Below are positions 28,520 through 42,895 of a stretch of 64,000 nucleotides of DNA, piece by piece (positions within the stretch are counted from its first letter, which is position 1; each line of letters starts with the position of its first letter). Made by a program: the position numbers and the translations under genes. The stretch lies in the NCBI GenBank assembly GCA_018823835.1, contig JAHJHT010000002.1:310001-374000 (forward strand). The letters are read 5' to 3'. The notes below the pieces were generated by a model. It saw only the letters and a program-made list of their open reading frames with translations, was not told the DNA's origin and searched no databases. The stretch comes from Alphaproteobacteria bacterium (GTDB lineage Bacteria > Pseudomonadota > Alphaproteobacteria > Rhizobiales > Rhizobiaceae).

Positions 28520-30730
28520 ATGTTGAAGTTTTTGCGGGTCGGCCTGCTGGCCGCCACGACGATGGTGGCTGCCGGTACGATGCTGGCCGCGCCGGCCATG
28601 GCGCGGACGAACCACGCGGTGCTGGTCGCCGTCACCGCCTATCCCGGGCTCCCGCAGAAGGCTTCACTTGTCGGACCCAACCACGATGCGAAACTGGTGC
28701 GCGACTACCTTCTGTCAAGCGCACCTGTCGCCTTCGACGAAGCCAATGTGACGTTGCTCGCCGACAATCTTGACGGCGCAGCCGCCTCGCCGACCCACGA
28801 GCACATTCTCGATGCGCTGAAGGCAGTCGCTGAGGGCGCCGAGCGCGATGACTTCGTCTACCTGCATTTTTCCGGCCATGGCGCGCAGCAGCCGGCGCTC
28901 GAGCCCGGAAGCGAGACCGACGGTCTCGACGAGATCTTCCTGCCGGCCGACACGGCGAAATGGGCCGACCGGACAAAAGGCGTCCCCAATGCGCTGATGG
29001 ACAACGAGATCGGTGCCGCTCTCGATGCGATCCGCGACAAGGGCGCCTTCGTCTGGATCATCTTCGATGCCTGCCACTCGGGCGACGCCACACGCGATAT
29101 CGCGCCGGCCGGCGAGCACGACCGCAAGGTCGAGTTCGACGATCTCGGCATTCCCGAGTCGGCCGTGCAGGCTGCGATGGCCGAGGCAGCGGCGACGCCA
29201 CAGGAGGCCGAAGCCGCGCGCCGCGAGGCTGCCTTCGAGCTTGGAACCTCCAGCCGCGGCATCGACGCCGGCACCGACCAGAGCGCCACCGGCGCGCAGT
29301 CGATCGCCAAGGGCGGCATGGTCGCCTTCTTCGCGGCCCAGACCATCGAGACGACGCCGGAAATGCCGCTGCCCAAGGGAACGCCAGGCGCGGAGAGCTA
29401 CGGGCTCTTCACCTACACGATCTTCTCCAAGCTGGCGGAGAACCCCAACATGACCTACCGCCAGCTCGGCCACGCCGTACTGCAGCAATACTCCGCCGAT
29501 GCAAGGCAGCGACCCACCCCGCTCTTCGAGGGCGAACTCGATGCGCGCGTCTTCGGTTCGGAAAAGATCGACACCGTCATGCAGTGGCAGGTCGAGGCCA
29601 AGGACGGCAAGGCAGGCCTGCCGGCCGGCCTACTGCATCGCCTGACGCCCGGAACGAAACTGGCGGTGCTTCCTTCGCCTGCTTCGGAACTGTCCGAGAC
29701 GCTCGGCTACCTCGAGGTGAAGTCGGCAAAGAACCTGACGAGCACGGTCGTGCCGGTCGCCTTCGAGGGCAAGCCTGCGCTCGACCTTGCCGCGATGCCG
29801 GCCAACGCTTATGCGCGGCTCGTCGAGCTGGCCGTCGACTATCGGCTCAAGGTGGCGCGCCCTGCCGGTGGCGACGGGTTCGACGCCGAAGTGGCCCTCG
29901 TCGACAGCGCGCTCGAAAAGCTCGCCACCGACGGCAAGGGCGTCAATGTCGAGATCGTCGAACCCGGCGCGGAGGCTGACGTTCGGCTCGCCGTGATGCG
30001 CGGCGACGCTTTTCCCGGGGCGAAATCCGCGAACGTCGCCGGCCCGGCGCTCTACTTCCTGCCATCCTCTGGCGATGCCGGCACCGCGACCGGCGAACAC
30101 CCGCCTCTGGTGGCGATCGATCCCTCCGACCCGGACAGGCTCGCCAAGGGCACGGCCGACAATCTGCTCAAGATCTTCCGCGCCACCAGCTTGTCGCGGC
30201 TTGCGGCGGCCAGCGACTACAAGCCCGACCAGGTCAACGTTCAGTTCATGATCCGGCGCGACGGCGCCGACGAGATGCAACCGCTCGAGACCGCCTCAGT
30301 GCCTGTGCTGATGCCCGACGACCAGGTGCACATCCTCGCCGAGAACAAGTCGACCAAAGTCGTCGACATCAACATTCTCTACGTCGGCAGCGACTACTCC
30401 ATCACCCATATCGACGCCCAGCGCCTGGTGCCCGGCGCGCGCATCGAGGAGGGGCTGTTCGCCTTTACCGACACGAGCTTCGGGCGTGAGCGGATGATTG
30501 CCGTGCTGACCGAGGCGCCGCCGCTTAGCGAGATCGAGGATCTTTCGTTCCTCGCCCAGCCGGGGGTCGCCAAAGTCACCCGTGACATCAACGCACCGGT
30601 CGGCTTCGCGGACATGCTGGCTGACATCGGCGCGGCACCCTCGACGCGCTCCGTCATGAAGCTCGGCGACAAGAGCGGCGCCAAGGGGGCAGTGATGATC
30701 TTCCCGATGGAGACGACGCCGCGGCTTTGA
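28520..30730 (+). CDS. Secreted caspase-family (C14) protease with C-terminal beta domains
   Basis: A 736-residue protein with a clear signal peptide ending AAPAMA (about residue 28). The caspase-fold domain covers roughly 30-340: HAVLVAVTAYPGL, the catalytic His in YLHFSGHGAQQ (His120) and the catalytic Cys in IFDACHSGD (Cys185), so it should be active. A 60-residue Ala/Glu-rich insert follows the Cys and might be a processing loop. The C-terminal ~370 residues look like beta-rich domains, with a DUF4384-like stretch around NILYVGSDYSITHI. The track starts at 28274; ATG 28520 has GGGAG 9 nt upstream. It is the first gene of a five-gene operon. Confidence 0.87.
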   Translation: MLKFLRVGLLAATTMVAAGTMLAAPAMARTNHAVLVAVTAYPGLPQKASLVGPNHDAKLVRDYLLSSAPVAFDEANVTLLADNLDGAAASPTHEHILDALKAVAEGAERDDFVYLHFSGHGAQQPALEPGSETDGLDEIFLPADTAKWADRTKGVPNALMDNEIGAALDAIRDKGAFVWIIFDACHSGDATRDIAPAGEHDRKVEFDDLGIPESAVQAAMAEAAATPQEAEAARREAAFELGTSSRGIDAGTDQSATGAQSIAKGGMVAFFAAQTIETTPEMPLPKGTPGAESYGLFTYTIFSKLAENPNMTYRQLGHAVLQQYSADARQRPTPLFEGELDARVFGSEKIDTVMQWQVEAKDGKAGLPAGLLHRLTPGTKLAVLPSPASELSETLGYLEVKSAKNLTSTVVPVAFEGKPALDLAAMPANAYARLVELAVDYRLKVARPAGGDGFDAEVALVDSALEKLATDGKGVNVEIVEPGAEADVRLAVMRGDAFPGAKSANVAGPALYFLPSSGDAGTATGEHPPLVAIDPSDPDRLAKGTADNLLKIFRATSLSRLAAASDYKPDQVNVQFMIRRDGADEMQPLETASVPVLMPDDQVHILAENKSTKVVDINILYVGSDYSITHIDAQRLVPGARIEEGLFAFTDTSFGRERMIAVLTEAPPLSEIEDLSFLAQPGVAKVTRDINAPVGFADMLADIGAAPSTRSVMKLGDKSGAKGAVMIFPMETTPRL

Positions 30731-30782
30731 CACGGCTCGTGCCCTGCCCGACAATGCCAGTCCCTGCCGAAAAGGTGGTTCC

Positions 30783-31160
30783 GTGACCAGACTGACAAGA
30801 TTGCACCGCGGCGTTGCCCTGCTTGGCGCGCTCATGTCCGCCTCCGCCGCCGGCGCCACGGAGCCCTGCGGCCTGTGCGACCAGAAAGTGGTGACCAACT
30901 CGGCGCTGGCTGCTTGTTTCCTCGAAGCCTACCCCTCGCTTGCCGGCAAGACCGAGGGCGCCGTTGTCGTCGATCTCAGCGCCTGCGAGCAGTCGCGCGG
31001 CATCGTGGATGCCCTGCGCCTGCCGGGCTCCGGCCCGCTGGAGCCAGACGTCGAATTCATCCTGACGCCCGAACAGCTCGGCTGCCTCAAGGCGAAGCTC
31101 GAGCAACCCGACCTGGCGCTCGACCCGACCGCGACGATCGAGCTGGACAGTTGCGAATGA
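30783..31160 (+). CDS. Small exported Cys-containing protein, function unknown
   Basis: A 125-residue protein with a signal peptide (cleavage probably after SAAGA, about residue 25). The mature part starts with EPCGLCDQ and has six Cys in all, including a CxxC pair, so disulfides are likely in the periplasm. I do not recognise the family. GTG 30783 is preceded by AAGGTGG with 6-nt spacing. Its stop overlaps the next start (ATGA), so it belongs to the caspase operon. Confidence 0.7.
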   Translation: MTRLTRLHRGVALLGALMSASAAGATEPCGLCDQKVVTNSALAACFLEAYPSLAGKTEGAVVVDLSACEQSRGIVDALRLPGSGPLEPDVEFILTPEQLGCLKAKLEQPDLALDPTATIELDSCE

Positions 31161-31855
31161 GCAAGGCGAAGACAGTCGTCGGCAAGGCCGCGCCTGCGCC
31201 GGAGAACAAGCCCGCCGCCCTCCCCGAGACGGCCGGCGCCATGCCGTGGCTCAGCGCGCATGAGGTGAAGAAGGAGTCCAACCCCTTCACAGAGCGGGAC
31301 TGGCGCATGCTGGTCTATGCCTGGTCCGGCCTGGTCATCCGCCTCACGCTGGTGCTCGGCGCCATCTTCTCGGTCTACCAGTATCTTGCCGCCCGCGAGG
31401 AAAAGCGCGTCGAGCGCGCGCTCGAACTCGTCGAGCTCTGGGAGCAGCCCGACTACCAGGCGGCGCAGCGGGCGCTGAAGCTGCGCATCGGCTCGCTCAA
31501 CGAACGCTATGCCAGCCTGGTCGGGGAAAACCCGACCGCCTCCGAGCAGGCGGTCTATGCCAGCCGCATCGGCATGGAGGCGCTGACGGCGGATGGCGGC
31601 ACCATGCCGCTCGCCGACTTCCAGGACCAGTTCGACCGCATCGTCTATTTCCTCAACCGGGTGTCCTTCTGCGTCGAGGGCGGACTCTGCTCGCGCGAGG
31701 TGGCCGACGCCTATTTCCGCGATTTTGCGCAATCCTTCTGGAGCTATTTCTCCGGCTATGTTGCCAGACAACGCAAGGCCTTCTCGCCGACCTACGCGCT
31801 GCCGATCGAGCAGTATCTCAAGGGTTCGGGCGCCGCGCCCGCCCGGCCGGAGTAG
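31157..31855 (+). CDS. Single-span membrane protein, possibly DUF4760-like
   Basis: A 232-residue protein: a Lys- and Pro-rich N-terminal tail (~45), one transmembrane helix around 53-72 (LVIRLTLVLGAIFSVYQYL), then a helical soluble domain beginning AREEKRVERALELVELWEQP. The end region (FDRIVYFLNRVSFCVEGGL...YFRDFAQSFWSYF) resembles DUF4760-type proteins, but I am not certain. There is no enzyme motif. The overlap with the upstream stop and the 4-bp gap to the WD40-caspase gene suggest a membrane partner of these proteases. Confidence 0.7.
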   Translation: MSKAKTVVGKAAPAPENKPAALPETAGAMPWLSAHEVKKESNPFTERDWRMLVYAWSGLVIRLTLVLGAIFSVYQYLAAREEKRVERALELVELWEQPDYQAAQRALKLRIGSLNERYASLVGENPTASEQAVYASRIGMEALTADGGTMPLADFQDQFDRIVYFLNRVSFCVEGGLCSREVADAYFRDFAQSFWSYFSGYVARQRKAFSPTYALPIEQYLKGSGAAPARPE

Positions 31856-31859
31856 CGCC

Positions 31860-34800
31860 ATGACTTCTGCCCCGAGACGCCGTTCCACCATCCGCCGGTT
31901 CATCGGCCTAGTCGCAGCGGCCGCCCTCGCCGGCTGCATGGCCATAGTGCACCCCGCCCTGGCGCAGGAGGCGCCACAGTTCTTCCTTGACCTAGACACC
32001 GGCGGCCACCGCGCCTTCGTCAAGGACCTCGCTTTCACGCCCGACGGCGAACTGCTGGTCTCGGCTTCCGACGACAAGACCATACGCATCTGGGACTGGC
32101 AGACCGGCGTATCGCTGCGCACCCTGCGCGGCCAGATCGGCCCCGGCAACGAGGGCAAGATATTCGGCATCGCCATCTCGCCTGACGGCAAGACCGTCGC
32201 CGCCGTCGGCTATTTCGGTCCGGGCCTAGGCGACAGCCCGCCCTATGGCGACGTCCGGCTGTTCGATCTCTCTACCGGCAAGATCAAGGCCGTGCTGAAG
32301 GGTCTCGACTACGCCAACTACGACGTCGCCTTCTCGCCCGACGGAACGGTGATCGCTGCTGGCGGCCAGGACGGCATCGTCAAACTGTGGCGCCAGGATG
32401 CGGCAGGCGAATCCGGCTGGTCCGATTTCGTCGCGCTCGACGCCGATTCCTACCGCATCAGCCAGGTAGGCTTTGCCGCCGGAGGCAATCGCCTCGTCGC
32501 CACGACGACCGACAACGGCATCCGCCTCTTCGATATGGCAACGCAGGCAGAGATCGAATTGCCGGAAGATGCCGAGCCGCTGCGCGACACCAGCGTCGTG
32601 TCGCTTGCGGTTTCCAGGGACGGCGCGCTGTTTGCCATCGGCACAGCGAACGGCGTCGTCGAAATCCGCCGCGCGGATGACGGCACGCTTGTCCACGCAC
32701 TGCCGCCGCAGGACTATCTCGTCGGCGCGCTTTCCTTCACCGGCACGGGCGACCGCATCGTGCTGTCCTGCGGCTATGGTTGCCGCGACGAACACCGGAC
32801 GCAGGTCTGGCCGATCGACGGCGACGCGCCCGTGCTCGACTATCGCGGCCATGACGGCACGGTCTCGGCGAGCATCGTCTCGCCCGACGGCGGCACCGTC
32901 GTTACCGCGGGCGGCACCCGCCACGTGATCCAGCTCTGGAACCCGCTGACCGGCGAGATGACGCGCGCCTTGCAGGGTCGCGGCCAACCGGTGATGGCGG
33001 TCGGTGCCGACCCGAAGACGCTCGAGATCGCCTGGGGCAATGTCGATCCCTGCCCTGATCGCAATGCCTGCCCTGAGGCGCTCGGAGAGCTCTCCATGCG
33101 GCTCGGCCTGCCGTCTCTGGAGCGATACTTCGAACAGCCCGAGCCGCTTGCCGGGGGCGCGGAACGCTACCGCCGCGCCGTCCTCGCCACCGGCGACTGG
33201 GCGCTGAAGGCGGCGGCTGGCGGCAGCTACGACCTCGACAACGCGATCCTCGAAATCGCGCGGGCCGGCGAAACGCGGCACCGCATTGAAAACGACGCCA
33301 CCAATGGATACCTGCACAGCGCCTTCACGCTCCTCGACAGCGGGACCAACCTGGTCACCGGCGGCAATGACGGCACGCTGATCGAGTACGGTGCGGAGAG
33401 TGGCGCCTTCGCCGGCGAATTCCGCGGCGGGCATACCGGCGAGATCCACGCCATGGCCGCGCTCGACAAGGCGGGCCTGCTGGTCACCGGCAGCGCCGAC
33501 CAGACGCTGCGGCTCTGGAACCTCCGGACGCGCGAACTGATCGTCTCGATCTACGTCGACGACACCGACTGGGTCGCCTGGATGCCGCAGGGCTACTACT
33601 ACGCTTCCGACAATGGCGACGAGCGCTTCGGCTGGCAGGTCAACCAGGGCCAGGACAAGGAAGGCCGCTTCGTCCGCGCCGGGCAATTGAAGACCTTCCT
33701 GTGGAGCCCCGAAATGGTGCGCCGCGCCATCATCCTGAAGAGTTCGAGCGCCGCTGTCTCCGAGATGCGCCCGGGCGCGGAGCGGCAGCTGGAGCGCCTG
33801 CTCGAGCGCAGGCCGCCCGAGTTCGACATCAAGCTCGCCGCAGACCAGTCGGGCGTGCGCGACGGCTATGTGGCGATCGAGATCATCGGCGCCGAGGAAG
33901 CCGAGACCGACGTCGCCGCCTTCTCGATCCTGTCCAACAGCCGCAATGTCGGCGACCTGACCTCCCGCTCGGTGACCGGTGGCGGCAAGACTACGATCAT
34001 CGAGGTGCCGATCCAGGAAGGCCAGAACGAGATCCGCATCACCGGCACCAACGCCGCCGGTTACTTGACCGAGCGCAGCGTGGCCGCACTCGGCAAGAAG
34101 AAGCGCGCCGCCGAAAAGAAGGGCAAGCTCTACGCCGTAGTCATCGGCGTCGAGAAGTACCCGTTCCTGAAGGAAGAGTGCAGCGGGCGGCCCTGCGACC
34201 TCAGCTACACGGTCGACGACGCCACCGCGTTCCTACACGTTCTGGAGCGCAACTCCGCGCCGCTCTTCACCGGCATGGAATCGCTGGTCATCGTCAACCA
34301 GGATTCGCTCGAGGAAACCTCGGAAGGTGCTGTCCGCCTCGCCGCTCTCGACGACGTGCTGGAACCCGACGCCGACACGATCAGCGACGAACTGACTGAC
34401 TTCCTCGACCTGCCGGGACCGGACGACACGACCATCGTCTTCGTTGCCGGCCACGGCATCAACATCGGCGAGGACTACTACTTCATCCCGACAGACGGGC
34501 GGAAGCAGGATGCCGATCGCTGGAAACGGTCTTCGCTCGTGGAGTGGTCCGACATCCAGAAGGCGGTGGAGCGCGCCGAGGGCGTGCGCTTCATGATGCT
34601 CGACACCTGCCATGCCGGCAACGCCTTCAACCCTCGCCTCGAAAAGGACGCCGCAGACGCCCGCATCGTCGTCTTCTCGGCGACAGCTGCCAACAACACG
34701 GCGCTCGAAATGGCCGAGCTCGGCCACGGCGTCTTCACCTACACGCTGCTCAAGGGACTGGAGGGCGAGGCCAAGACCTCGGAGGACGGCGTCACGCTGT

Positions 34801-34910
34801 TCGGCCTCGCCGACTATGTCGGGCGCGAGGTGGCGACACTGACCGATTCCCGGCAGAAGCCATTCTACTATGCCGGCGGCGTCGAGAACCTGCTGATGGC
34901 AAAGCCGTGA
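31860..34910 (+). CDS. WD40-repeat caspase-family (C14) protease, exported
   Basis: A 1016-residue protein. The N-terminus has a hydrophobic segment with LAGC (possible lipobox) and then ALAQ, so it is either a lipoprotein or cleaved later. WD40 blades run from about 45 to 430 and 560 to 660 (LVSASDDKTIRIWDWQTG; LLVTGSADQTLRLWNLRT). A linker with FGWQVNQGQ and an Ig-like segment leads to the C-terminal caspase domain from about 755: LYAVVIGVEKYPF, catalytic His865 in VAGHGINIG and Cys917 in MLDTCHAGNAF. Both catalytic residues are present. ATG 31860 starts 4 bp after the previous stop. WD40 domains usually mediate protein contacts, so it may gather partners or substrates. Confidence 0.9.
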   Translation: MTSAPRRRSTIRRFIGLVAAAALAGCMAIVHPALAQEAPQFFLDLDTGGHRAFVKDLAFTPDGELLVSASDDKTIRIWDWQTGVSLRTLRGQIGPGNEGKIFGIAISPDGKTVAAVGYFGPGLGDSPPYGDVRLFDLSTGKIKAVLKGLDYANYDVAFSPDGTVIAAGGQDGIVKLWRQDAAGESGWSDFVALDADSYRISQVGFAAGGNRLVATTTDNGIRLFDMATQAEIELPEDAEPLRDTSVVSLAVSRDGALFAIGTANGVVEIRRADDGTLVHALPPQDYLVGALSFTGTGDRIVLSCGYGCRDEHRTQVWPIDGDAPVLDYRGHDGTVSASIVSPDGGTVVTAGGTRHVIQLWNPLTGEMTRALQGRGQPVMAVGADPKTLEIAWGNVDPCPDRNACPEALGELSMRLGLPSLERYFEQPEPLAGGAERYRRAVLATGDWALKAAAGGSYDLDNAILEIARAGETRHRIENDATNGYLHSAFTLLDSGTNLVTGGNDGTLIEYGAESGAFAGEFRGGHTGEIHAMAALDKAGLLVTGSADQTLRLWNLRTRELIVSIYVDDTDWVAWMPQGYYYASDNGDERFGWQVNQGQDKEGRFVRAGQLKTFLWSPEMVRRAIILKSSSAAVSEMRPGAERQLERLLERRPPEFDIKLAADQSGVRDGYVAIEIIGAEEAETDVAAFSILSNSRNVGDLTSRSVTGGGKTTIIEVPIQEGQNEIRITGTNAAGYLTERSVAALGKKKRAAEKKGKLYAVVIGVEKYPFLKEECSGRPCDLSYTVDDATAFLHVLERNSAPLFTGMESLVIVNQDSLEETSEGAVRLAALDDVLEPDADTISDELTDFLDLPGPDDTTIVFVAGHGINIGEDYYFIPTDGRKQDADRWKRSSLVEWSDIQKAVERAEGVRFMMLDTCHAGNAFNPRLEKDAADARIVVFSATAANNTALEMAELGHGVFTYTLLKGLEGEAKTSEDGVTLFGLADYVGREVATLTDSRQKPFYYAGGVENLLMAKP

Positions 34911-36643
34911 GCCGGCAAATTTCTCCGGTGCTCATACAGCTCGGACTTGCAGCAGCCAGGCGGCTCCTGGCTCTGATCGCAGCACTGGCAGTTCTGGTCT
35001 CGCTCGGCGTCGGCAGCCGGGCTGCCGAGCCTGCATGCCCGCCTGCCGGTGGTGATTACCCGCGCCTCTACAGCGACTGGTCGTTGTTCGACAAGGCAAT
35101 CGCCGAGGTTGCCTCCTACGAACCCTCCAACGAGCGTCTCACCGGCATCACTTCGCCGCATCATCTGCTCGCCAGCCACCTGGTCGCTCTCGGCTTTCGC
35201 GCCGCATCCGGCTTCCGCTATAAGCGCATCATCCTGCTCGCACCGGACCATTTCTTCCGGTCGGACAAACCCTTCGCCACCACAACACATGGCTTCGACA
35301 CCGCGACGGGCCGCGTGGCTACCGACGCCGCGGCGGTGAGACAGTTGCTCGACGGCAGGGACTGGATCGAGGAGTCCTGCCTGTTCGACAAGGAGCACGG
35401 CGTGCGCGCGCTGCTGCCCTTCCTGCACCATTATTTTCCGGAGGCGTCGGTCATCCCCGTCGCCATCTCGATCAAGACCCGCCGCGCCGACTGGGAGCGC
35501 ATGGCCGAGGCGCTGGCGCCGCTTGTTGACGGCGAAACGCTGATCGTCCAGTCGACCGACTTCTCGCACTACCTGCCGCACCACGTGGCACGCCGCTTCG
35601 ACCAGCAGACGCTGAATACAATCGCGTCGGGCTCGCTCGACGCGATTGCCGGCCTGCGCCAGCCGGACCACGCCGACTCCGCCGGCGCGCTCTACATCCA
35701 GACGGCATTGCAGCGCCGCTTGTTCGGCGCGGCGCCCCTGGTCGTCGCCAACGAAAACATGCAGCAATATTCGGCCGGCCATATCGAGGAGACGACGAGT
35801 TACCTGGTCATCCTGTTCGGTCGTTTCGGCCCGGGCTTCAACAATCCGGCCGAGGGCAAGGAACGCTTCTACTACCTCGCAGGCGACACCATGTTCGGCC
35901 GCGCCATGACGCGCTTCCTGCTCGACGAGCGCCACAGCGAAAGTGTGGAGAACGAAATTCTGGCGCTGACGAAGTCGCGGCCGCTGGTCGTCAATCTCGA
36001 GGGCGTGCTCTTGCCCAACGTGCCGGAGGCGCTCGAGCACATGACGCTCGGCATGCCGGCGGAGCTTGCCGTCGACTGGCTGAAGCGGCTGAACGTCGCT
36101 GGCGTCGGCCTCGCCAACAACCATTCCATGGACCTTGGCGACGCCGGCTATGCAGAGACGCTCGGAGCGCTGAAGCAGGCTGGCATTCCCGCTTTCGGCC
36201 AGGGCGAGGCGCTGGAACTGCCCCGCCTCGACATCGTCGGCCTGACCGACATCGGCAGGAACGGCACCGACGCGCTCGACCTGATCGACCCCCCGCTGCT
36301 CGACCGCCTGGTGCGGCCCGATGCTCTGAGGCCCGTCGTCGCCTTCGTCCACTGGGGCAGCGAGTACGTCGCCGCGCCAGGTCCTCGCGAAAGAATGCTT
36401 ACCGACGAGATGCGGCTGCGCGCCGTCTCGGCCATCGTTGGCGCCCACCCGCATGTCGCAAGCGGTGCGCTCAACGCTCTCGGCGGCGGCGACACGCTGG
36501 AACTCTATTCGCTCGGCAACTTCCTGTTCGACCAGACCGCCGAGCGGTCGTCCGGTTCGCTGCTCGAGATCCGTGTCTTCGAGCAGGGGACCTTCTTTGC
36601 GCGGCTCATCCCGCTCCCAGCTTTCTACGACACGCCGGGCTAG
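34907..36643 (+). CDS. Exported MEMO (AmmeMemoRadiSam B)-CapA fusion protein
   Basis: A 578-residue protein starting at GTG that overlaps the previous stop (GTGA). Signal peptide (to GSRAAE, about 40). Residues ~70-300 match the MEMO/AmmeMemoRadiSam-B fold: HHLLASH, LLAPDHFF, KEHGVRALLPFLHHYFP, QSTDFSHYLPHH. The usual downstream CG pair is not seen (it reads ADSAGAL). Residues ~320-560 are a CapA/PgsA-type metallophosphatase: AGDTMFGRAM, VNLEGVL, ANNHSMDLGDAGY, FVHWGSEY, VGAHPHV, YSLGNFLFDQ. CapA motifs are complete, so a phosphoesterase-like or amide-bond-related activity is possible. I know of no described function for this fusion. Confidence 0.85.
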   Translation: MSRQISPVLIQLGLAAARRLLALIAALAVLVSLGVGSRAAEPACPPAGGDYPRLYSDWSLFDKAIAEVASYEPSNERLTGITSPHHLLASHLVALGFRAASGFRYKRIILLAPDHFFRSDKPFATTTHGFDTATGRVATDAAAVRQLLDGRDWIEESCLFDKEHGVRALLPFLHHYFPEASVIPVAISIKTRRADWERMAEALAPLVDGETLIVQSTDFSHYLPHHVARRFDQQTLNTIASGSLDAIAGLRQPDHADSAGALYIQTALQRRLFGAAPLVVANENMQQYSAGHIEETTSYLVILFGRFGPGFNNPAEGKERFYYLAGDTMFGRAMTRFLLDERHSESVENEILALTKSRPLVVNLEGVLLPNVPEALEHMTLGMPAELAVDWLKRLNVAGVGLANNHSMDLGDAGYAETLGALKQAGIPAFGQGEALELPRLDIVGLTDIGRNGTDALDLIDPPLLDRLVRPDALRPVVAFVHWGSEYVAAPGPRERMLTDEMRLRAVSAIVGAHPHVASGALNALGGGDTLELYSLGNFLFDQTAERSSGSLLEIRVFEQGTFFARLIPLPAFYDTPG

Positions 36644-36652
36644 GCGAGCGCC

Positions 36653-38446
36653 TCAGCAACCGGGAATGGCGTCGTCCGACAGTGTGCAGACAGGAGGCTC
36701 CATGCCGGGCTGAAAATTGGAATCTCGCGGCCGCATGAAGAAGAAGCTGACCGGCTTGCTCTTGCGCACGCTGCCGTCGGCGAATGTCGCGGCAACGCTG
36801 AACTGGTGGAACGACGACATTCGCGGTTCGGCCGCAAGTTTCAGACGTGCCACGTGTCGCGTGAGCTTCCTGTTTCCGCGCACCGGCAGCTCAATGGTGT
36901 AGTTCTGCTTGCCGACGGGAAAGTTCACGTCCTGGTAGCGCAATGCTTCCGGCGCCTGGTTATAACCTGCGCCGCACTCGGCCTGGTTCGGGGTCTCGAT
37001 CACCGCCAGCGAGAACTCGGCGCGGAACTGCTCCGACGCCGGATAGACATTGCCGGCATCGTCGGCCCAGCTGTAATCGAAGGTGCCCACAGCCGTCGTC
37101 GTCAGGAACTGGTCTCCCGACACGAAGTCGGCAAGCTCGCCGAAACCGACCTCGTTGAAGACCTGGCTACGGCAGACGTTTATGGCCTCGATGGACTGGC
37201 AGGAGAAGCGACCCTGCTCCAGCTTTCGCGTGTCAACGCCAGCCTCGTCAAAGATATTGCGGATGCCGACGTCGGTTCCCTGGTCGAAGCTGCCGACCGC
37301 GTGGCTGTAACTGCGGCTCGCCGGGCTGCCCTCGTCCTGTCCGGTGAACTGGAAGTTCATCGTCATGTCGCGCACGTCGCCCCAGCCATGGTTCTTGATC
37401 GAGAAGGACGGTCTGAAGCCGTTATACCCGCGATGGGGGACGATTGACAGCATCGGCTTGCGGTAGGCCTCGCTGTTGGCGACCTGCAGCTCCAGCCTGT
37501 CGAGATCGACACGCTTTCCATCGGTCGAGCCCATCTCGACTTCGACATAGGCTGGCGCATCGAGGTCGCGGTCTTCGAACATCCATTCGCTCTCGTGGAT
37601 CACCCCGGTGCCGTTCCAGAAATTGTTCATCTCCTCGTCGACGGGGTATACGGCGATGTCCTCCTCGCGCACGAGGTGCTGGTAGGCAAGGACGTCGTTT
37701 TCGATGGCCTGCTGCGTCATGCGCGGCTCGATCGCAACCGATATCTCCACCCTGCCGGCGTCGCCGCCCGACTGCGCCTTCATGAGCCCGCCAAGCGTCG
37801 CGTCGGCGACGATCTCCGGCCTGCCGCTCTCCAGCCCCATGGTCCAGCGCGAGATGTAGGTCGCGCCTCCGGCTAGCCTGGTCTCGCCTTCGCCATGCCT
37901 GACACCATGCGCGAAAGTGCCTGTGTAGATGCTGCCGTTCGTCTCGGCCAGACGGCCCTCGCCATCTGGACGGCCTTCGGAAAACTCGCCCTCGTAGCGG
38001 TTGCCCGCGGTATCGACATGGACGCCCCTACCGCTGAGGAGGCCGGCAGCGAAATGGCCCTCGAACAGTTCGCCCGAGCGAAACTGCAGCCGGCCCTCGC
38101 CATCAGGACGGCCGTCCTTCATCTCACCGACATAAGTGCTGTAGATGGTGTTGGGATCGTAGCTCGCCGATCCGCGCACGCGCCAGACGAGCTTGCCTTT
38201 GCCGGTCACGCTACCGTCTGCAGCAAGCGAGTCGGGTTCAGCCGGTTCCCAGACGAAGTCGAGTTTTTTTTCAGGTTCGCTGTCCCAGACGCGCACCGCG
38301 CGGCGGACGACCGTTCCTTCGTCCTTCTGGTAGATGACCTGGACGCGCTCGGCCCATGCGCCGGCCGGTGTTGCACTCTCGGCAATTGCCGGCGCGCCCG
38401 ACAGGCCAGCCAGAACGACCGCTACAACCCCAATCCCGAATTTCAT
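36653..38446 (-). CDS. Exported MORN-repeat protein, copy 1
   Basis: A 597-residue protein with a signal peptide ending APAIAE (about 23). A first domain (25-100) contains VWDSEPEKKLDFVWEPAE. Four MORN repeats follow at about 104-195 (YVGEMKDGRPDGEGRLQF, FEGHFAAGLLSGRG, YEGEFSEGRPDGEGRLAE, YTGTFAHGVRHGEGE). About 400 residues of unknown, probably beta-rich sequence follow, with conserved Cys and the tail PPVCTL. It is a paralogue of the next gene through its whole length. It converges on the MEMO-CapA gene with a 9-bp gap. Confidence 0.85.
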   Translation of the reverse strand: MKFGIGVVAVVLAGLSGAPAIAESATPAGAWAERVQVIYQKDEGTVVRRAVRVWDSEPEKKLDFVWEPAEPDSLAADGSVTGKGKLVWRVRGSASYDPNTIYSTYVGEMKDGRPDGEGRLQFRSGELFEGHFAAGLLSGRGVHVDTAGNRYEGEFSEGRPDGEGRLAETNGSIYTGTFAHGVRHGEGETRLAGGATYISRWTMGLESGRPEIVADATLGGLMKAQSGGDAGRVEISVAIEPRMTQQAIENDVLAYQHLVREEDIAVYPVDEEMNNFWNGTGVIHESEWMFEDRDLDAPAYVEVEMGSTDGKRVDLDRLELQVANSEAYRKPMLSIVPHRGYNGFRPSFSIKNHGWGDVRDMTMNFQFTGQDEGSPASRSYSHAVGSFDQGTDVGIRNIFDEAGVDTRKLEQGRFSCQSIEAINVCRSQVFNEVGFGELADFVSGDQFLTTTAVGTFDYSWADDAGNVYPASEQFRAEFSLAVIETPNQAECGAGYNQAPEALRYQDVNFPVGKQNYTIELPVRGNRKLTRHVARLKLAAEPRMSSFHQFSVAATFADGSVRKSKPVSFFFMRPRDSNFQPGMEPPVCTLSDDAIPGC

Positions 38447-38489
38447 GACAGTGCCCCCGACCTTCGGCCCCCACAGCCAACCTTACCTA

Positions 38490-38518
38490 AAGGTAGACAG
38501 GGGTCGGAATTCAGTCAA
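38490..38518 (-). promoter_or_regulatory. Promoter of MORN gene copy 1 (duplicated element)
   Basis: On the minus strand TTGACT and TACCTT are separated by 17 nt. The same boxes with the same spacing occur before MORN copy 2, as does the leader word GGGGGCCG, so promoter and leader were duplicated with the gene. Here the -10 region also forms TACCT-AA-AGGTA, a palindrome absent from copy 2. Confidence 0.6.
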
Positions 38519-38549
38519 ATCGTTGAACGGATGGGCTTGTCCGTCGTCC

Positions 38550-40337
38550 CTAGCAGCCTCCGACACTCGACAGGGTGCAGACCGGCGGCTCCATGCCCGG
38601 CTGGAATTTCGACAGCCGGGGCTGCACGTAATAGAGGTTCACCGGCTTGCTCTTGCGAATGCTTCCGTCTGTGAAATGCGCCGCCACGCTGAACTGGTGG
38701 AACGACGACATGGCGGGCTCGGCATCGAGCTTCATGCGTGCGATGTAGCTCGAAATGCTGCGGTTGCCGCGCACCGGGATGTCAATGCTGTAGTCCTTTT
38801 TGCCGACCGGCAGGTGTACCTCCTGGTAGCGCAGCGCTTCAGGCGCCATGGGCGCTAGGTCGCCGCATTCCGCCTCGATCGGATATTCGATCACCGCCAG
38901 CGCGATGTCGACGCGGAACGTCTCGCTGGCGTCGTAGACCGTGCCGCTGTCGTCGGCCCATTTATAATCGAGAGTCCCCGCCAGATTGGTGTAGATCTGG
39001 TCGTTTCCCTCCACGTAGTCGGCGATGTCGCCGAAACCGGCATCGTTGAAGACCTGACTTCTGCACACATCGACCGCTTCGCGCGACGGACAGGTATAGC
39101 GGGCCTTCGCCAGCCTCCCCGTCTCGACGCCGACCTCGTCGAAGATGTCCTTGATGGCGACATCGATGCCCTCATCGAACGAGCCGACGACACGCGAGAA
39201 GGCGCGGCTTCTGGGAATGTCATCCTTCTCGGTCGCGAACTGCAGCGTCATCTTCATGTCGCGCACATCGCCCCAGCCGTAGTTCTTGATCGAGAAAGAC
39301 GGGCGAAAGCCCGTGCATCCCTGGTGTGAAATCGTCGCCAGCATCGGCTTGCGGTAGGCCTCGCTGTTGGCGACCGCAAGTTCGAGCCGGTCCAGCTTCA
39401 CCTTGGAGCCATCGCGCGTGCGCACGCCCACCTCGACATAGGCGGGTGCATCCCAGTCCCGGTTGTCGAACATCCAGCTGTCCGTCGAAATCTGGCCGCT
39501 GCCGTTCCACAGGCCGTTGATCCTATCGTCGATGGGGTAGATCGCGATCGACTCGTCCTGCACGAGGTGCTGGTAGGTCATGACGCCACTGTCGCTGGCG
39601 CGCTGCGTCATGCGCGGCTCGATCGCCACGGCGATCTCGGCCTTGCCGGCATCGCCACCCGACTGCGCCTTCAGCAGCCCGCCCAGCGTCGCGTCGGCGA
39701 CTACTTCCGGTCGGCCACTCTCGAGACCCATCGTCCAGCGCGAGACATAGGTAGCACCGCCGGCCAACTGTGACGTTCCCTCGCCGTGCTTCAGCCCGTT
39801 TGCGAAGGAGCCGGTGTAGATTGTGCCCGTGGTCTCGGCGAGGCGACCCTCGCCATGCGGGCGGCCGGCGATGAACCCGCCCTCGTAGCGGTTGCCTGCC
39901 GTGTCGACATGCAGGCCCTTGCCCTCCAGCCGGCCGGCAACGAAATGGCCTTCGAAGAGTTCGCCGGAGCGGAACTGCAGCCGGCCCTGGCCGTCAAGCC
40001 GCCCGTCCTTCAGGCCGCCGACGTAGGTGCTGTAGATCGTATCCGGATCATAGCTCGCCGAGCCGCGCACGCGCCAGACGAGCTTGCCCCTGCCGTTCAC
40101 CGTGCCGTCGGCGGCGAGTGTTCCGTCTTCGGCAGGCTCCCAGACGAAGTCGAGGTTCTTTTCGGGCTCGCTGTCCCAGACGCGCACGGCGTGGCGCTGC
40201 ACCGTTCCCTTGTCCTTGACGTAGAGGACCTGAACGCGCTTGGCCCACGCGCCGTCCGGCGCTGCGCGCTCGGCAAATGCCGGCGAGATGAAAAAACCTG
40301 CCAGCAAGACTGCGACAAACCCGATCCTGCACTGCAT
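38550..40337 (-). CDS. Exported MORN-repeat protein, copy 2
   Basis: A 595-residue paralogue of the downstream MORN gene. It has the same order: signal peptide ending SPAFAE, VWDSEPEKNLDFVWEPAED, four MORN repeats (YVGGLKDGRLDGQGRLQF, FEGHFVAGRLEGKG, YEGGFIAGRPHGEGRLAE, YTGSFANGLKHGEG), and the long unknown C-terminal region with SEAYRKPML, RPSFSIKN-GWGDVRDM and tail PPVCTL. I start at ATG 40337 (MQCRIGF), which begins the signal peptide; the track adds 15 residues from upstream. MORN repeats commonly bind lipids or proteins, so an envelope location is plausible. Confidence 0.85.
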   Translation of the reverse strand: MQCRIGFVAVLLAGFFISPAFAERAAPDGAWAKRVQVLYVKDKGTVQRHAVRVWDSEPEKNLDFVWEPAEDGTLAADGTVNGRGKLVWRVRGSASYDPDTIYSTYVGGLKDGRLDGQGRLQFRSGELFEGHFVAGRLEGKGLHVDTAGNRYEGGFIAGRPHGEGRLAETTGTIYTGSFANGLKHGEGTSQLAGGATYVSRWTMGLESGRPEVVADATLGGLLKAQSGGDAGKAEIAVAIEPRMTQRASDSGVMTYQHLVQDESIAIYPIDDRINGLWNGSGQISTDSWMFDNRDWDAPAYVEVGVRTRDGSKVKLDRLELAVANSEAYRKPMLATISHQGCTGFRPSFSIKNYGWGDVRDMKMTLQFATEKDDIPRSRAFSRVVGSFDEGIDVAIKDIFDEVGVETGRLAKARYTCPSREAVDVCRSQVFNDAGFGDIADYVEGNDQIYTNLAGTLDYKWADDSGTVYDASETFRVDIALAVIEYPIEAECGDLAPMAPEALRYQEVHLPVGKKDYSIDIPVRGNRSISSYIARMKLDAEPAMSSFHQFSVAAHFTDGSIRKSKPVNLYYVQPRLSKFQPGMEPPVCTLSSVGGC

Positions 40338-40381
40338 GCCCAAACCCCGTTTCTCCCGGCCCCCAAAGCCGGCCTTCCGCA

Positions 40382-40410
40382 AAGGTATGCAGACGATCTT
40401 GTCCAGTCAA
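40382..40410 (-). promoter_or_regulatory. Promoter of MORN gene copy 2 (duplicated element)
   Basis: TTGACT-N17-TACCTT on the minus strand, embedded in GATTTGACTG-N16-TACCTTT that is shared with MORN copy 1. It lies about 43 bp before the start codon. Conservation of the boxes but not of the spacer sequence supports a real promoter. Confidence 0.6.
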
Positions 40411-40430
40411 ATCAGCATGTTGATAAGCAA

Positions 40431-40465
40431 AGGGAGCCGGCAACATGTGCTGTCGCCGGCCCCCT
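40431..40465 (-). terminator. Hairpin terminator of the trypsin-like gene
   Basis: On the minus strand AGGGGGCCGGC pairs with GCCGGCTCCCT around a 13-nt loop (one mismatch) and is followed by TTTGC. It starts 30 bp beyond the stop of the minus-strand serine protease, and before the MORN copy 2 promoter. Confidence 0.5.
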
Positions 40466-40494
40466 TCAAACGCTGATGATCGCGCCGTTTCAGC

Positions 40495-41583
40495 CTACTT
40501 CCAGAGGCTGTTGATCCAGGCGACGTAGCTGGCGTTCAGGCGCACAGCGGTGTTCGCCGACGGGCTTTCCGCAATGTTCACACCGACGACGACGCGCTGT
40601 TTGGAGTTTGAATCGTAGGCGTAGACAGAGCTGCCGCTGGAACCCGGATAGGTGTCGCAATCATACGAGAAGTTGATCGCGCCGACCTGCTCGGCCATCA
40701 CTTCGCATGTCGCGCGCCACATCAGTGCCGGCGGCTCCTTGTCGCCGGGATAGCCGACGATATTGGCGGTGAAATCGCCGAGCCCATCGTAATTGGCATA
40801 GCCGAGCCAGCCGAGGCTGTCGCCGATCGGCTCAGACAGCGTGATGATGCCGAGATCCCACGGCACGACCGAGCCGTAGTAGCCCTGGTAGTTGGTGATG
40901 AAGCCTTCAAGGATGCTCATCGATTCCGCGGCAACCGCTCCGAAGGGAGCATCACCGAAACCGTTGAGGCCCGGCGCGAAAAGCACGTCGGTCAGCCATT
41001 CCTGGTGCTCGACGCTGTAGACGCAATGCGCTGCCGTCAGCACGGTGCGCGGCCCGATCAACGTACCCGAGCAGCTGCCTACGCCACTCTTCGACTTGGC
41101 CTCGATGTAGCCGAACACCTTGAAAGGATAAACCTTGGTATTGGCGACCTGCACGCGGTCGTCGGTGCCGAAGACCTGCCTGTTGGCCTCTTCGCCTTCG
41201 CTGAAAGCCGGGTCCTCGGACTTCTCGATGTCGCTGGTACCCTTGCCCTCTTCTGCGCCCAGTTCCTTCAGAACCAGCCCGCGGACCTCTTCGCTCGGTG
41301 CCGAGCGCGTGACATTGCCGTCCGCCGACCGCGTCACAACGGTCAACGCCTCGACGGCCTTTTCCTCGTCGAGCATCGGCGCGGCGCGCGATTCTTCGCC
41401 GGCTTCGATCTTCGGCGGAGCACTCGGTGTTTCGCCCTGGAGCTGGTGATCGGTCGCCGGAGAACCGCGCGACTCTTCCCCTGTCCCCGGGCTGGCGGAA
41501 CCCATTTCCGCGAAGGCGGGGGCTACCCAGACGCCCGCCGACACGACAGTCGACAATGCAATAAGCTTAGCAAGTTTCTTCAT
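40495..41583 (-). CDS. Exported trypsin-fold (glutamyl-endopeptidase-like, S1B) serine protease, proenzyme
   Basis: 362 residues: signal peptide (APAFA, about 25), a 110-residue acidic propeptide, then a V8/GSE-like domain. The domain begins VFGTDDRVQVANTKVYPF directly after NRQ (Arg135). Catalytic His186 in VLTAAHCVYS, Asp in PWDLGIITL and Ser316 in YPGSSGSSVYA are all present, as is the CSGTLIGP segment. The propeptide repeats GEESR-x-x-P (GEESRGSP, GEESRAAP). Substrate preference cannot be read safely. It is divergent from the second protease gene; its ATG has GGGAGAG upstream. Confidence 0.88.
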   Translation of the reverse strand: MKKLAKLIALSTVVSAGVWVAPAFAEMGSASPGTGEESRGSPATDHQLQGETPSAPPKIEAGEESRAAPMLDEEKAVEALTVVTRSADGNVTRSAPSEEVRGLVLKELGAEEGKGTSDIEKSEDPAFSEGEEANRQVFGTDDRVQVANTKVYPFKVFGYIEAKSKSGVGSCSGTLIGPRTVLTAAHCVYSVEHQEWLTDVLFAPGLNGFGDAPFGAVAAESMSILEGFITNYQGYYGSVVPWDLGIITLSEPIGDSLGWLGYANYDGLGDFTANIVGYPGDKEPPALMWRATCEVMAEQVGAINFSYDCDTYPGSSGSSVYAYDSNSKQRVVVGVNIAESPSANTAVRLNASYVAWINSLWK

Positions 41584-41872
41584 AGTGAGACTCTCCCAAA
41601 GTCAGCAAGGGCCGGATGAGATAAGTGGAATCATGTCGATATTTTGGTCATCGCGGATTCCCGCCCGGCCACCCCCCGGCGGCATCGGCCCCATGTTCAC
41701 CCGCGATTCCCCGGAAAACCCGACCCTGCGTCAACCAGAACACACTGCCCAAATAAATCCAAGATTGAAAACGACAATTTGCTATCTCTTGGCCCGTGGG
41801 GGGCTTTAGATGATGCGGTGCGCCCGGGCTTGGGTCGAGCGCCGGCAGAATGGTTTGTCTCAGGAGGTCAAC
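41584..41872. other. Divergent control region between the two serine protease genes
   Basis: A 289-bp gap between divergent starts. It contains a short AT-rich block (CCCAAATAAATCCAAGATTGAAAACGAC region) about 100 bp before the plus-strand gene. I could not fix a promoter for either gene, and the TTGACT-TACCTT element of the MORN genes is not repeated here. No ORF is convincing. Confidence 0.5.
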
Positions 41873-42895
41873 TTGATTTTTGTGAATTCGAAACTGCCGC
41901 TGGCAGCTGCGGCGCTGGTCGTCGTCACGGCTGGAATGGGCGGCATCGCTCCGGCCAGTGGCGCTGAGATGCGGCCGGAACTGTCGCCGATGAGCCGCGT
42001 CACCGCGGCGCGTGCCGAAGCAGCGAAGTCCGACGACGGGTCGAACGATCGCGTCTTTGGCGGCAACGAGGCCGATCCCGGCGAATGGCCCTTCCAGGTT
42101 GCGCTGCTGTCCAGCAGCATGCTCGATGACAGCGTTGCCTCGCAGGCCAATGCGCAGTTCTGCGGCGGCAGCCTGATCGCACCGCAATGGGTTCTGACGG
42201 CGGCGCATTGCGTGACCGATGGCGGCATGACGGTCAGCCCCGACACCATGGTTGTCCTGACCGGGGCGACGAGCCTCGAGGAGGGCAGCCGCTTCATGGT
42301 CGCCGAGGTGGTGCGGCACGAGGGCTACGACGAAACGACGCTCGACAACGACATCGCGCTGCTCAAGCTCGCAGAGCCGGCCGACGCACCGACCGTGAAG
42401 CTGGTCGAGGCGCGAGGCGACGACAAGGGCAAGGTTCGCGTCACCGGCTGGGGCCGCATGGACGACGGCAACTTCCCGATGACACTGATGGAGGCTGAAC
42501 TCGACCTCGAACCGATCTCGGCCTGCAACGAGGGCATCCGGGCGATCTACGCCAGAGACCTGGAGCTCATCCTGCGCAATTTCGCGCCGCGCATGCTCTA
42601 CTCCGAGACGGGTATCACCAGCGCGACCAAGTCGATCGTCGACACGATGAGCGACCGGCTTACCGACAACATGATCTGCGCCGGCACCACGACCGGCGTG
42701 CGTGACGCCTGCAACGGCGACAGCGGCGGCCCGCTCTTCGTCGAGAAGCCTGACGGCGCCGTCCAGATCGGCATTGTCAGCTGGGGCGAAGGCCCGATGG
42801 ATGCAGCCGCCGCCTGTGGCCACGCCAATGCCTATGGCGTCTACACACGAGTCGCCAACTACAAGGACTGGATCGCCGGAAAGACCGGGATGTAG
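41873..42895 (+). CDS. Exported trypsin-family (S1A) serine protease, proenzyme
   Basis: 340 residues. The signal peptide ends near PASGAE (about 32). A short propeptide ends in NDR60, followed by VFGGNEADPGEWPF, the equivalent of the R|IVGG activation site of trypsinogen. Triad: His112 (LTAAHC), Asp160 (DNDIALL), Ser284 (CNGDSGGP). The residue six before Ser is Asp (DACNGDSGG), as in true trypsins, predicting cleavage after Arg/Lys. The start is decided by a perfect AGGAGG 5 nt before TTG 41873; the track start at 41810 has none. It lies next to, and divergent from, the other protease gene. Confidence 0.9.
   Translation: MIFVNSKLPLAAAALVVVTAGMGGIAPASGAEMRPELSPMSRVTAARAEAAKSDDGSNDRVFGGNEADPGEWPFQVALLSSSMLDDSVASQANAQFCGGSLIAPQWVLTAAHCVTDGGMTVSPDTMVVLTGATSLEEGSRFMVAEVVRHEGYDETTLDNDIALLKLAEPADAPTVKLVEARGDDKGKVRVTGWGRMDDGNFPMTLMEAELDLEPISACNEGIRAIYARDLELILRNFAPRMLYSETGITSATKSIVDTMSDRLTDNMICAGTTTGVRDACNGDSGGPLFVEKPDGAVQIGIVSWGEGPMDAAAACGHANAYGVYTRVANYKDWIAGKTGM

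What the first reader, a model, noticed from the sequence alone, without database searches (positions are those of the whole stretch)
34907..36643. MEMO-CapA fusion exported as one protein
Seen: MEMO-type motifs (HHLLASH, STDFSHYLP) followed by a complete CapA metallophosphatase set (AGDTMFG, NLEG, ANNHSMDLG, HWGSEY, SLGNFLFD) behind one signal peptide. MEMO proteins are normally cytoplasmic and stand alone or beside AMMECR1 and a radical SAM protein; CapA acts on poly-gamma-glutamate or other surface polymers. The CG pair of the MEMO family is missing here. Inference: the MEMO part may have become a binding or accessory domain for an envelope enzyme.
Basis: partly seen in the sequence, partly recalled or inferred. 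Interest (0 to 1): 0.68.

Follow-up and report, generated by a model that had tools for sequence, protein, structure and literature searches.

The report
Exported MEMO-CapA fusion in gene cluster
A bacterial gene joins two unrelated metal-enzyme domains (a relative of the human protein MEMO1 and the surface-polymer enzyme CapA) into one exported protein, and it nearly always travels with the same secreted partner protein beside caspase-like or immune-type signalling genes, which points to an undescribed envelope system.

Summary
The fusion is real. Window 34907-36643 (578 aa) passes both the Memo and PGA_cap (CapA) cut-offs, and full-length fusions were found at 15 other alphaproteobacterial loci (one on a plasmid) and in 18 Patescibacteria genomes, so it is no frameshift or assembly join. 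'CG pair missing' is correct but is not a loss of the site: the exported clade has an almost invariant Asp (D257) where ordinary MEMO has the metal-binding Cys (human C244). With H85 and H115 this would restore the 2-His-1-carboxylate triad of extradiol dioxygenases. The CapA metal residues are intact. No fusion genome tested has AMMECR1. In alphaproteobacteria the gene is bound to a secreted MORN-repeat protein with an unnamed C-terminal domain: 6 of 398 genomes of the order have that domain, all among the 7 with the fusion. The pair lies beside exported caspase, WD40-caspase and trypsin genes (this window) or TIR/nSTAND1-WD40 genes. I conclude: an exported bifunctional metalloenzyme, a distinct MEMO subfamily in an undescribed envelope module. 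Substrate and phenotype are unknown; a stress or conflict role is inferred only from the neighbours. New variant of a known kind.

The parts
34907..36643 (+). MEMO-CapA fusion protein, 578 aa, hydrophobic N-terminal export signal
34907..35026 (+). signal peptide or signal anchor (residues 1-40)
   Evidence: hydropathy peak 2.81 at residue 21...GSRAAEP; AF2 helix 7-34 then low confidence
35093..35647 (+). Pfam Memo PF01875 match (residues 63-247); the fold continues to about residue 305
35159..35161 (+). H85, matches metal ligand H49 of human MEMO1
   Evidence: PMC11081632
35249..35251 (+). H115, matches metal ligand H81 of human MEMO1
   Evidence: PMC11081632
35675..35677 (+). D257, replaces metal ligand C244 of MEMO1; almost invariant in the exported clade
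   Evidence: one search gives a rival register two residues away
35876..36640 (+). CapA (PGA_cap) metallophosphoesterase-type domain, residues 324-578, with D327, N363/E365, N404-H406, H482, H514, H516, N538 invariant
28520..30730 (+). exported caspase-family peptidase (PF00656), SGHG and DACHSG motifs present; ATG start chosen by inspection
30783..31160 (+). small Cys-containing exported protein, conserved at this place in L001, L097, L098, L113
31157..31855 (+). membrane protein with DUF4760 (PF15956)
31860..34910 (+). WD40 propeller plus caspase domain, with N-terminal export signal
36653..38446 (-). secreted MORN-repeat protein with the conserved C-terminal domain (CTD) found only with the fusion
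38550..40337 (-). second MORN-CTD paralogue (67% identical)
40495..41583 (-). secreted trypsin-like protease
41810..42895 (+). second trypsin-like (S1, GDSGGP) protease, conserved in L097, L098, L113

Best explanation
The gene encodes an exported, two-site metalloenzyme that works in the periplasm or at the cell surface. The N-terminal MEMO half is a member of a distinct exported clade in which an Asp takes the place of the usual cysteine ligand, giving a predicted H85/H115/D257 mononuclear site like that of extradiol dioxygenases. The C-terminal CapA half has an intact two-metal phosphoesterase-type site. I think the two halves act in sequence or on adjacent groups of one envelope polymer or exported peptide, working with the secreted MORN-CTD partner, and that caspase/trypsin proteolysis or WD40/STAND signalling encoded next door switches the pair on. 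Shown: the fusion, its conservation, the intact residues, the clade, the absence of AMMECR1, and the partner and neighbour linkage. Inferred: metal identity, catalysis, complex formation, proteolytic control. Unknown: the substrate.
For: Both domains over cut-off in the window protein and found in 24 of 24 fusions. Fold matches to MEMO1, then to DOPA and aminophenol extradiol dioxygenases, and to MslH. Ligand-position residues kept in nearly all exported MEMO while ordinary MEMO has C at the third position. Human MEMO1: H49/H81/C244 bind Fe, C244S and H49A abolish binding, and LigB has Glu at the C244 position (PMC11081632). Exported MEMO separated from ordinary MEMO at 100 SH-aLRT. No AMMECR1 in 10 fusion genomes, control positive in 5. 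MORN-CTD in 6 of 398 genomes, all among the 7 fusion genomes (chance about 1e-12 if genomes were independent, which they are not) and adjacent in each. Two recurring neighbourhoods: caspase/WD40-caspase/trypsin (window, L097, L098, L113; mostly L001; partly L100) and nSTAND1-WD40 (L099, L114, L115, L181, plasmid L188).
Against: No biochemical evidence for either site. The D257=C244 equivalence rests on sequence alignment: one profile comparison with the 24-fusion alignment slides by two residues there, and the alphaproteobacteria-only profile may also be out of register, while the Patescibacteria profile, the all-exported profile and the many-sequence alignment agree on D=C. Model coordinates could not be read, so ligand geometry was not measured. 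L116 and L186 have ruined MEMO sites. L001 shows no MORN gene in the 6 kb held downstream, though a second fusion in the same genome has one. In the STAND neighbourhood the STAND protein looks cytoplasmic, so coupling to an exported enzyme needs an unseen link. Neighbour genes vary, so functional coupling beyond the MORN-CTD is weaker.
Confidence: 0.62

Rival explanations
1. The MEMO half is a non-catalytic binding or accessory domain for an exported CapA enzyme.
For: L116 and L186 keep CapA but have a degenerate MEMO site. The cysteine shown to bind iron in MEMO1 is absent.
Against: H85, H115, D218, H221 and D257 stay in nearly all other exported MEMO sequences, at 20-60% identity to the window protein. 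Patescibacteria keep exported MEMO without CapA in the same gene (L183, L170, L176), so it does not exist only to serve CapA.
Confidence: 0.2
2. The cluster is a stress-response or antiphage/conflict system (caspase or STAND-TIR sensor) in which MEMO-CapA is the envelope-acting effector. This is compatible with the best explanation and adds a biological role to it.
For: TIR-nSTAND1-WD40, CHAT-TPR-S, patatin and TPR-S-cyclase neighbours. Caspase, trypsin and STAND modules are common parts of the conflict systems described in PMC7159879 and PMC8195603. Patchy distribution, plasmid copy.
Against: In the window type the proteases themselves carry export signals, unlike what I know of the described systems. 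PADLOC gives only generic caspase, repeat or TIR-like hits and nothing for MEMO-CapA or the MORN protein. No paper searched links these families.
Confidence: 0.3
3. An ordinary capsule or poly-gamma-glutamate enzyme that happens to carry a MEMO domain; the neighbours are incidental.
For: CapA family name; no phenotype is known for the neighbours.
Against: The 6-of-6 co-occurrence and adjacency of the MORN-CTD, conserved gene order in four to six genomes, and no polymer-synthase gene among the neighbours that were scanned.
Confidence: 0.15

Closest known systems
MEMO1 / AmmeMemoRadiSam protein B (Pfam PF01875, TIGR04336)
   Same: Fold (7KQ8 best PDB match); both His ligand positions, D189/H192 equivalents, EH motif.
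   Different: Exported; fused to CapA; Asp in place of ligand Cys; no AMMECR1 in the genome; separate clade.
CapA / PGA_cap (PF09587), incl. lasso-peptide epimerase MslH (8GQ9)
   Same: All family motifs (GD, NLEG, NNH, HWG, GxHxH, SLGN).
   Different: Preceded by a MEMO domain in the same chain; linked to MORN-CTD and protease/STAND genes.
LigB-type class III extradiol dioxygenases
   Same: Related fold (2-aminophenol and DOPA dioxygenases among PDB matches); a 2-His-1-carboxylate triad is predicted.
   Different: Asp rather than Glu; exported; no aromatic-pathway gene seen among the neighbours scanned; only 1 of 24 members hits Pfam LigB, weakly.
NTP-dependent conflict systems (Kaur et al. 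2020/2021: VMAP, iSTAND, EACC1, nSTAND1)
   Same: Caspase, trypsin, TIR, nSTAND1, WD40 parts.
   Different: Exported components, MEMO-CapA and MORN-CTD; the first paper names Memo only for a related radical-SAM domain and the second not at all, and neither mentions MORN.

Membership tests
MEMO (PF01875 / MEMO1-like) | sequence over the curated cut-off and MEMO fold | tested here: met
   61.8 vs 27 bits; 7KQ8 top fold match
MEMO (PF01875 / MEMO1-like) | His-His-Cys metal site (H49, H81, C244) | tested here: not met
   both His present, Cys replaced by D257; human site from PMC11081632
AmmeMemoRadiSam system protein B | partnership with AMMECR1 and radical SAM | tested here: not met
   no AMMECR1 in 10 fusion genomes, control positive; radical SAM partner not searched
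CapA / PGA_cap | domain over cut-off with all metal motifs | tested here: met
   107 vs 27 bits; motif residues invariant in 24
CapA / PGA_cap | role in poly-gamma-glutamate or other polymer | not testable with these tools
   needs assay; not every gene of every locus was scanned for a synthase
Class III extradiol dioxygenase (LigB) | 2-His-1-carboxylate iron triad | tested here: inconclusive
   residues present by alignment, geometry not measured, one comparison shifted by two
Class III extradiol dioxygenase (LigB) | ring-cleaving activity | not testable with these tools
   needs assay
STAND/caspase conflict systems | linked caspase/trypsin/TIR/STAND genes | tested here: met
STAND/caspase conflict systems | defence or cell-death phenotype | not testable with these tools
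   needs experiment

The most novel reading that the evidence does not exclude
An undescribed exported signalling or conflict module in which caspase/trypsin or TIR-STAND sensing controls an envelope-acting, two-site MEMO-CapA enzyme with its obligate secreted MORN-CTD partner; its MEMO half is a catalytic 2-His-1-Asp oxygenase-type enzyme and could be the first MEMO protein with an assignable reaction.
Probability: 0.25. Interest if true: 0.85.

Novelty: new variant of a known kind. Interest (0 to 1): 0.6.

Why it matters
The primary molecular function of MEMO1 is unknown and its Cys ligand is an unusual variation on the dioxygenase site (PMC11081632). An exported clade that keeps the fold but puts Asp where the Cys was, and is physically fused to a second enzyme, gives a natural comparison and a small set of genes for finding what chemistry the fold performs. 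The strict tie to a secreted MORN protein next to caspase or STAND genes names a new envelope module to test.

Tried and rejected
Frameshift or assembly join: rejected, the fusion recurs in many genomes. Loss of the MEMO site: rejected for most members. Known antiphage system: PADLOC gives only generic caspase, repeat and TIR-like hits. Fold of the MORN-CTD: the model (pLDDT 77.5, pTM 0.63) matches only MORN proteins in PDB with confidence, nothing convincing for the C-terminal domain. Literature: no paper in the library holds both Pfam accessions, or PGA_cap with Memo and fusion. A 2019 JBC natural history of the dioxygenase superfamily (title and journal recalled from memory; cited as Burroughs et al., 2019 in PMC7159879) could not be read: the DOI tried from memory is not held, so an earlier mention of the fusion there cannot be excluded. 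AF2 coordinates are not exported, so ligand distances were not measured. The alignment of human MEMO1 itself stops before C244; the Cys column was reached through bacterial MEMO.

Full report
1. The observation. The window ORF 34907-36643 encodes 578 aa on the + strand with a GTG start that overlaps the upstream stop codon by 4 bases. Pfam assigns Memo (residues 63-247, E 8e-17) and PGA_cap (E 1e-30), both well over their cut-offs; NCBIfam calls it AmmeMemoRadiSam B. The N-terminus is a strongly hydrophobic export signal. The AF2 model built on eight fusions has pLDDT 85.7 and pTM 0.85. Against PDB it matches Fe-bound MEMO1 (7KQ8) first, then the CapA-family epimerase MslH, and further down the DOPA and aminophenol extradiol dioxygenases and calcineurin-like phosphoesterases.

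2. Not an artefact. Full-length fusions occur in a Rhizobiaceae MAG (53% identity), in genomes G032 (63%), G049 (60%), G097 (47%) and G092 (41%), in G368, G263, G405 and G431, in four more genomes of the window's family (G1096, G1101, G1106, G1160), on a conjugative Rhizobium leguminosarum plasmid (40%; annotated there only as AmmeMemoRadiSam B), as a second copy in the Rhizobiaceae MAG (L148/L181), and in Patescibacteria. A scan of ORFs in the fetched loci found 18 Patescibacteria genes with both domains, plus one (L186) with a very weak MEMO half. All 24 fusions of alignment A2 match both Pfam domains. Distribution is patchy: 7 of 398 genomes of the order, 7 of 151 in the family, 2 of 399 in a phylum-wide sample.

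3. The MEMO site. In human MEMO1 iron is bound by H49, H81 and C244; C244S and H49A do not bind iron, and LigB-type dioxygenases carry Glu at the C244 position (PMC11081632). In the window protein H85 and H115 match H49 and H81. At the cysteine position ordinary bacterial MEMO proteins carry C (15 of 16 in my set), whereas the exported clade carries D in every sequence long enough to judge; D257 is invariant over the 24 fusions. Register: the many-sequence L-INS-i alignment, the individual alignments of most Patescibacteria sequences to an ordinary-MEMO HMM, and profile comparisons with the Patescibacteria-only and all-exported profiles place D on C. The 24-fusion comparison puts C two residues further on, and the alphaproteobacteria-only profile is ambiguous, because of a short insert before the motif there. 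I therefore regard D257=C244 as likely, not proven.

4. A separate clade. On a quick ML tree the exported MEMO domains and ordinary MEMO fall on two sides of a branch with SH-aLRT 100. All 12 alphaproteobacterial fusions on the tree group together (92), with two Patescibacteria exported MEMO proteins that are not fused (L183, L170; both encoded beside DUF3160) as nearest relatives (99). The tree has long branches and no bootstrap, so the order of fusion and fission events is open. None of ten fusion genomes has AMMECR1, while the control genomes ring; the window genome has one Memo only.

5. The neighbourhood. In the window the gene is the last of a + strand run: caspase (28520-30730), a small Cys-containing exported protein, DUF4760 membrane protein, WD40-caspase (31860-34910), MEMO-CapA. 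It faces two MORN proteins (67% identical to each other) and two trypsin-like proteases. The same order, with one or two MORN genes, is found in L097, L098 and L113, without the MORN and trypsin genes in L001 as far as held, and in reduced form in L100. In L099, L114, L115, L181 and the plasmid L188 the caspase genes are replaced by nSTAND1-WD40 proteins (two with a TIR domain found), and sometimes CHAT-TPR-S, patatin, TPR-S-cyclase or WG-repeat genes are near.

6. The constant partner. The C-terminal domain of the MORN protein (A3) was sought in the same 398 genomes: 6 have it, all among the 7 with the fusion, and next to it; chance about 1e-12 if genomes were independent, which overstates it because of kinship. 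The seventh genome (G431/L116, 83% complete) has a wrecked MEMO site (N, D, H, R, D, P, D at the seven listed positions) and no MORN-CTD match; its contig ends about 500 bases upstream of the gene. The plasmid copy has the C-terminal domain without MORN repeats.

7. How it most likely works. Shown: export signal, two predicted metal sites with intact residues, a fixed secreted partner, linkage to proteases or STAND genes. Inferred: the enzyme acts on an envelope polymer or exported peptide with the MORN-CTD partner, under proteolytic or STAND-type control. The reading as a conflict system borrows from PMC7159879 and PMC8195603, which describe caspase, trypsin, TIR and nSTAND1 systems without these partners; the export signals of the window-type proteases are unlike those systems as I know them, so I hold it at about 0.3.

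8. Novelty. Both domains are known; the exported Asp-type MEMO clade, its fusion to CapA and the MORN-CTD module were not found described in the library, but one relevant survey is not held. New variant of a known kind.

Noticed in passing
window 28520-42895: Conserved cluster of exported proteins: two caspase-family proteins, DUF4760, MEMO-CapA, two MORN-CTD proteins, two trypsin-like proteases.
   Followed up: yes
L188 (R. leguminosarum plasmid pRL31b3, 12050-41624): Plasmid-borne fusion beside a MORN-less CTD protein, TIR-nSTAND1-WD40 and CHAT-TPR-S genes.
   Followed up: partly
L116:7906-9780: Fusion with degenerate MEMO site but intact CapA residues, without a MORN-CTD partner found.
   Followed up: partly
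L183:2403-5870, L170:206-2598: Unfused exported MEMO of Patescibacteria next to DUF3160 genes; nearest relatives of the alphaproteobacterial MEMO halves.
   Followed up: partly
L002:7894-9744, L003:4159-5991, L184:7314-9128, L185:7820-9820, L187:7541-9325: Large (about 600 aa) membrane-anchored protein beside the exported MEMO genes of Patescibacteria, without Pfam match; the L002 and L003 proteins are homologous and share a CGKPVIYLYPEKT motif, homology of the others not tested.
   Followed up: no
L182:1000-2423: MEMO and CapA as separate adjacent reading frames (split or frameshifted fusion) in a Patescibacteria genome.
   Followed up: no
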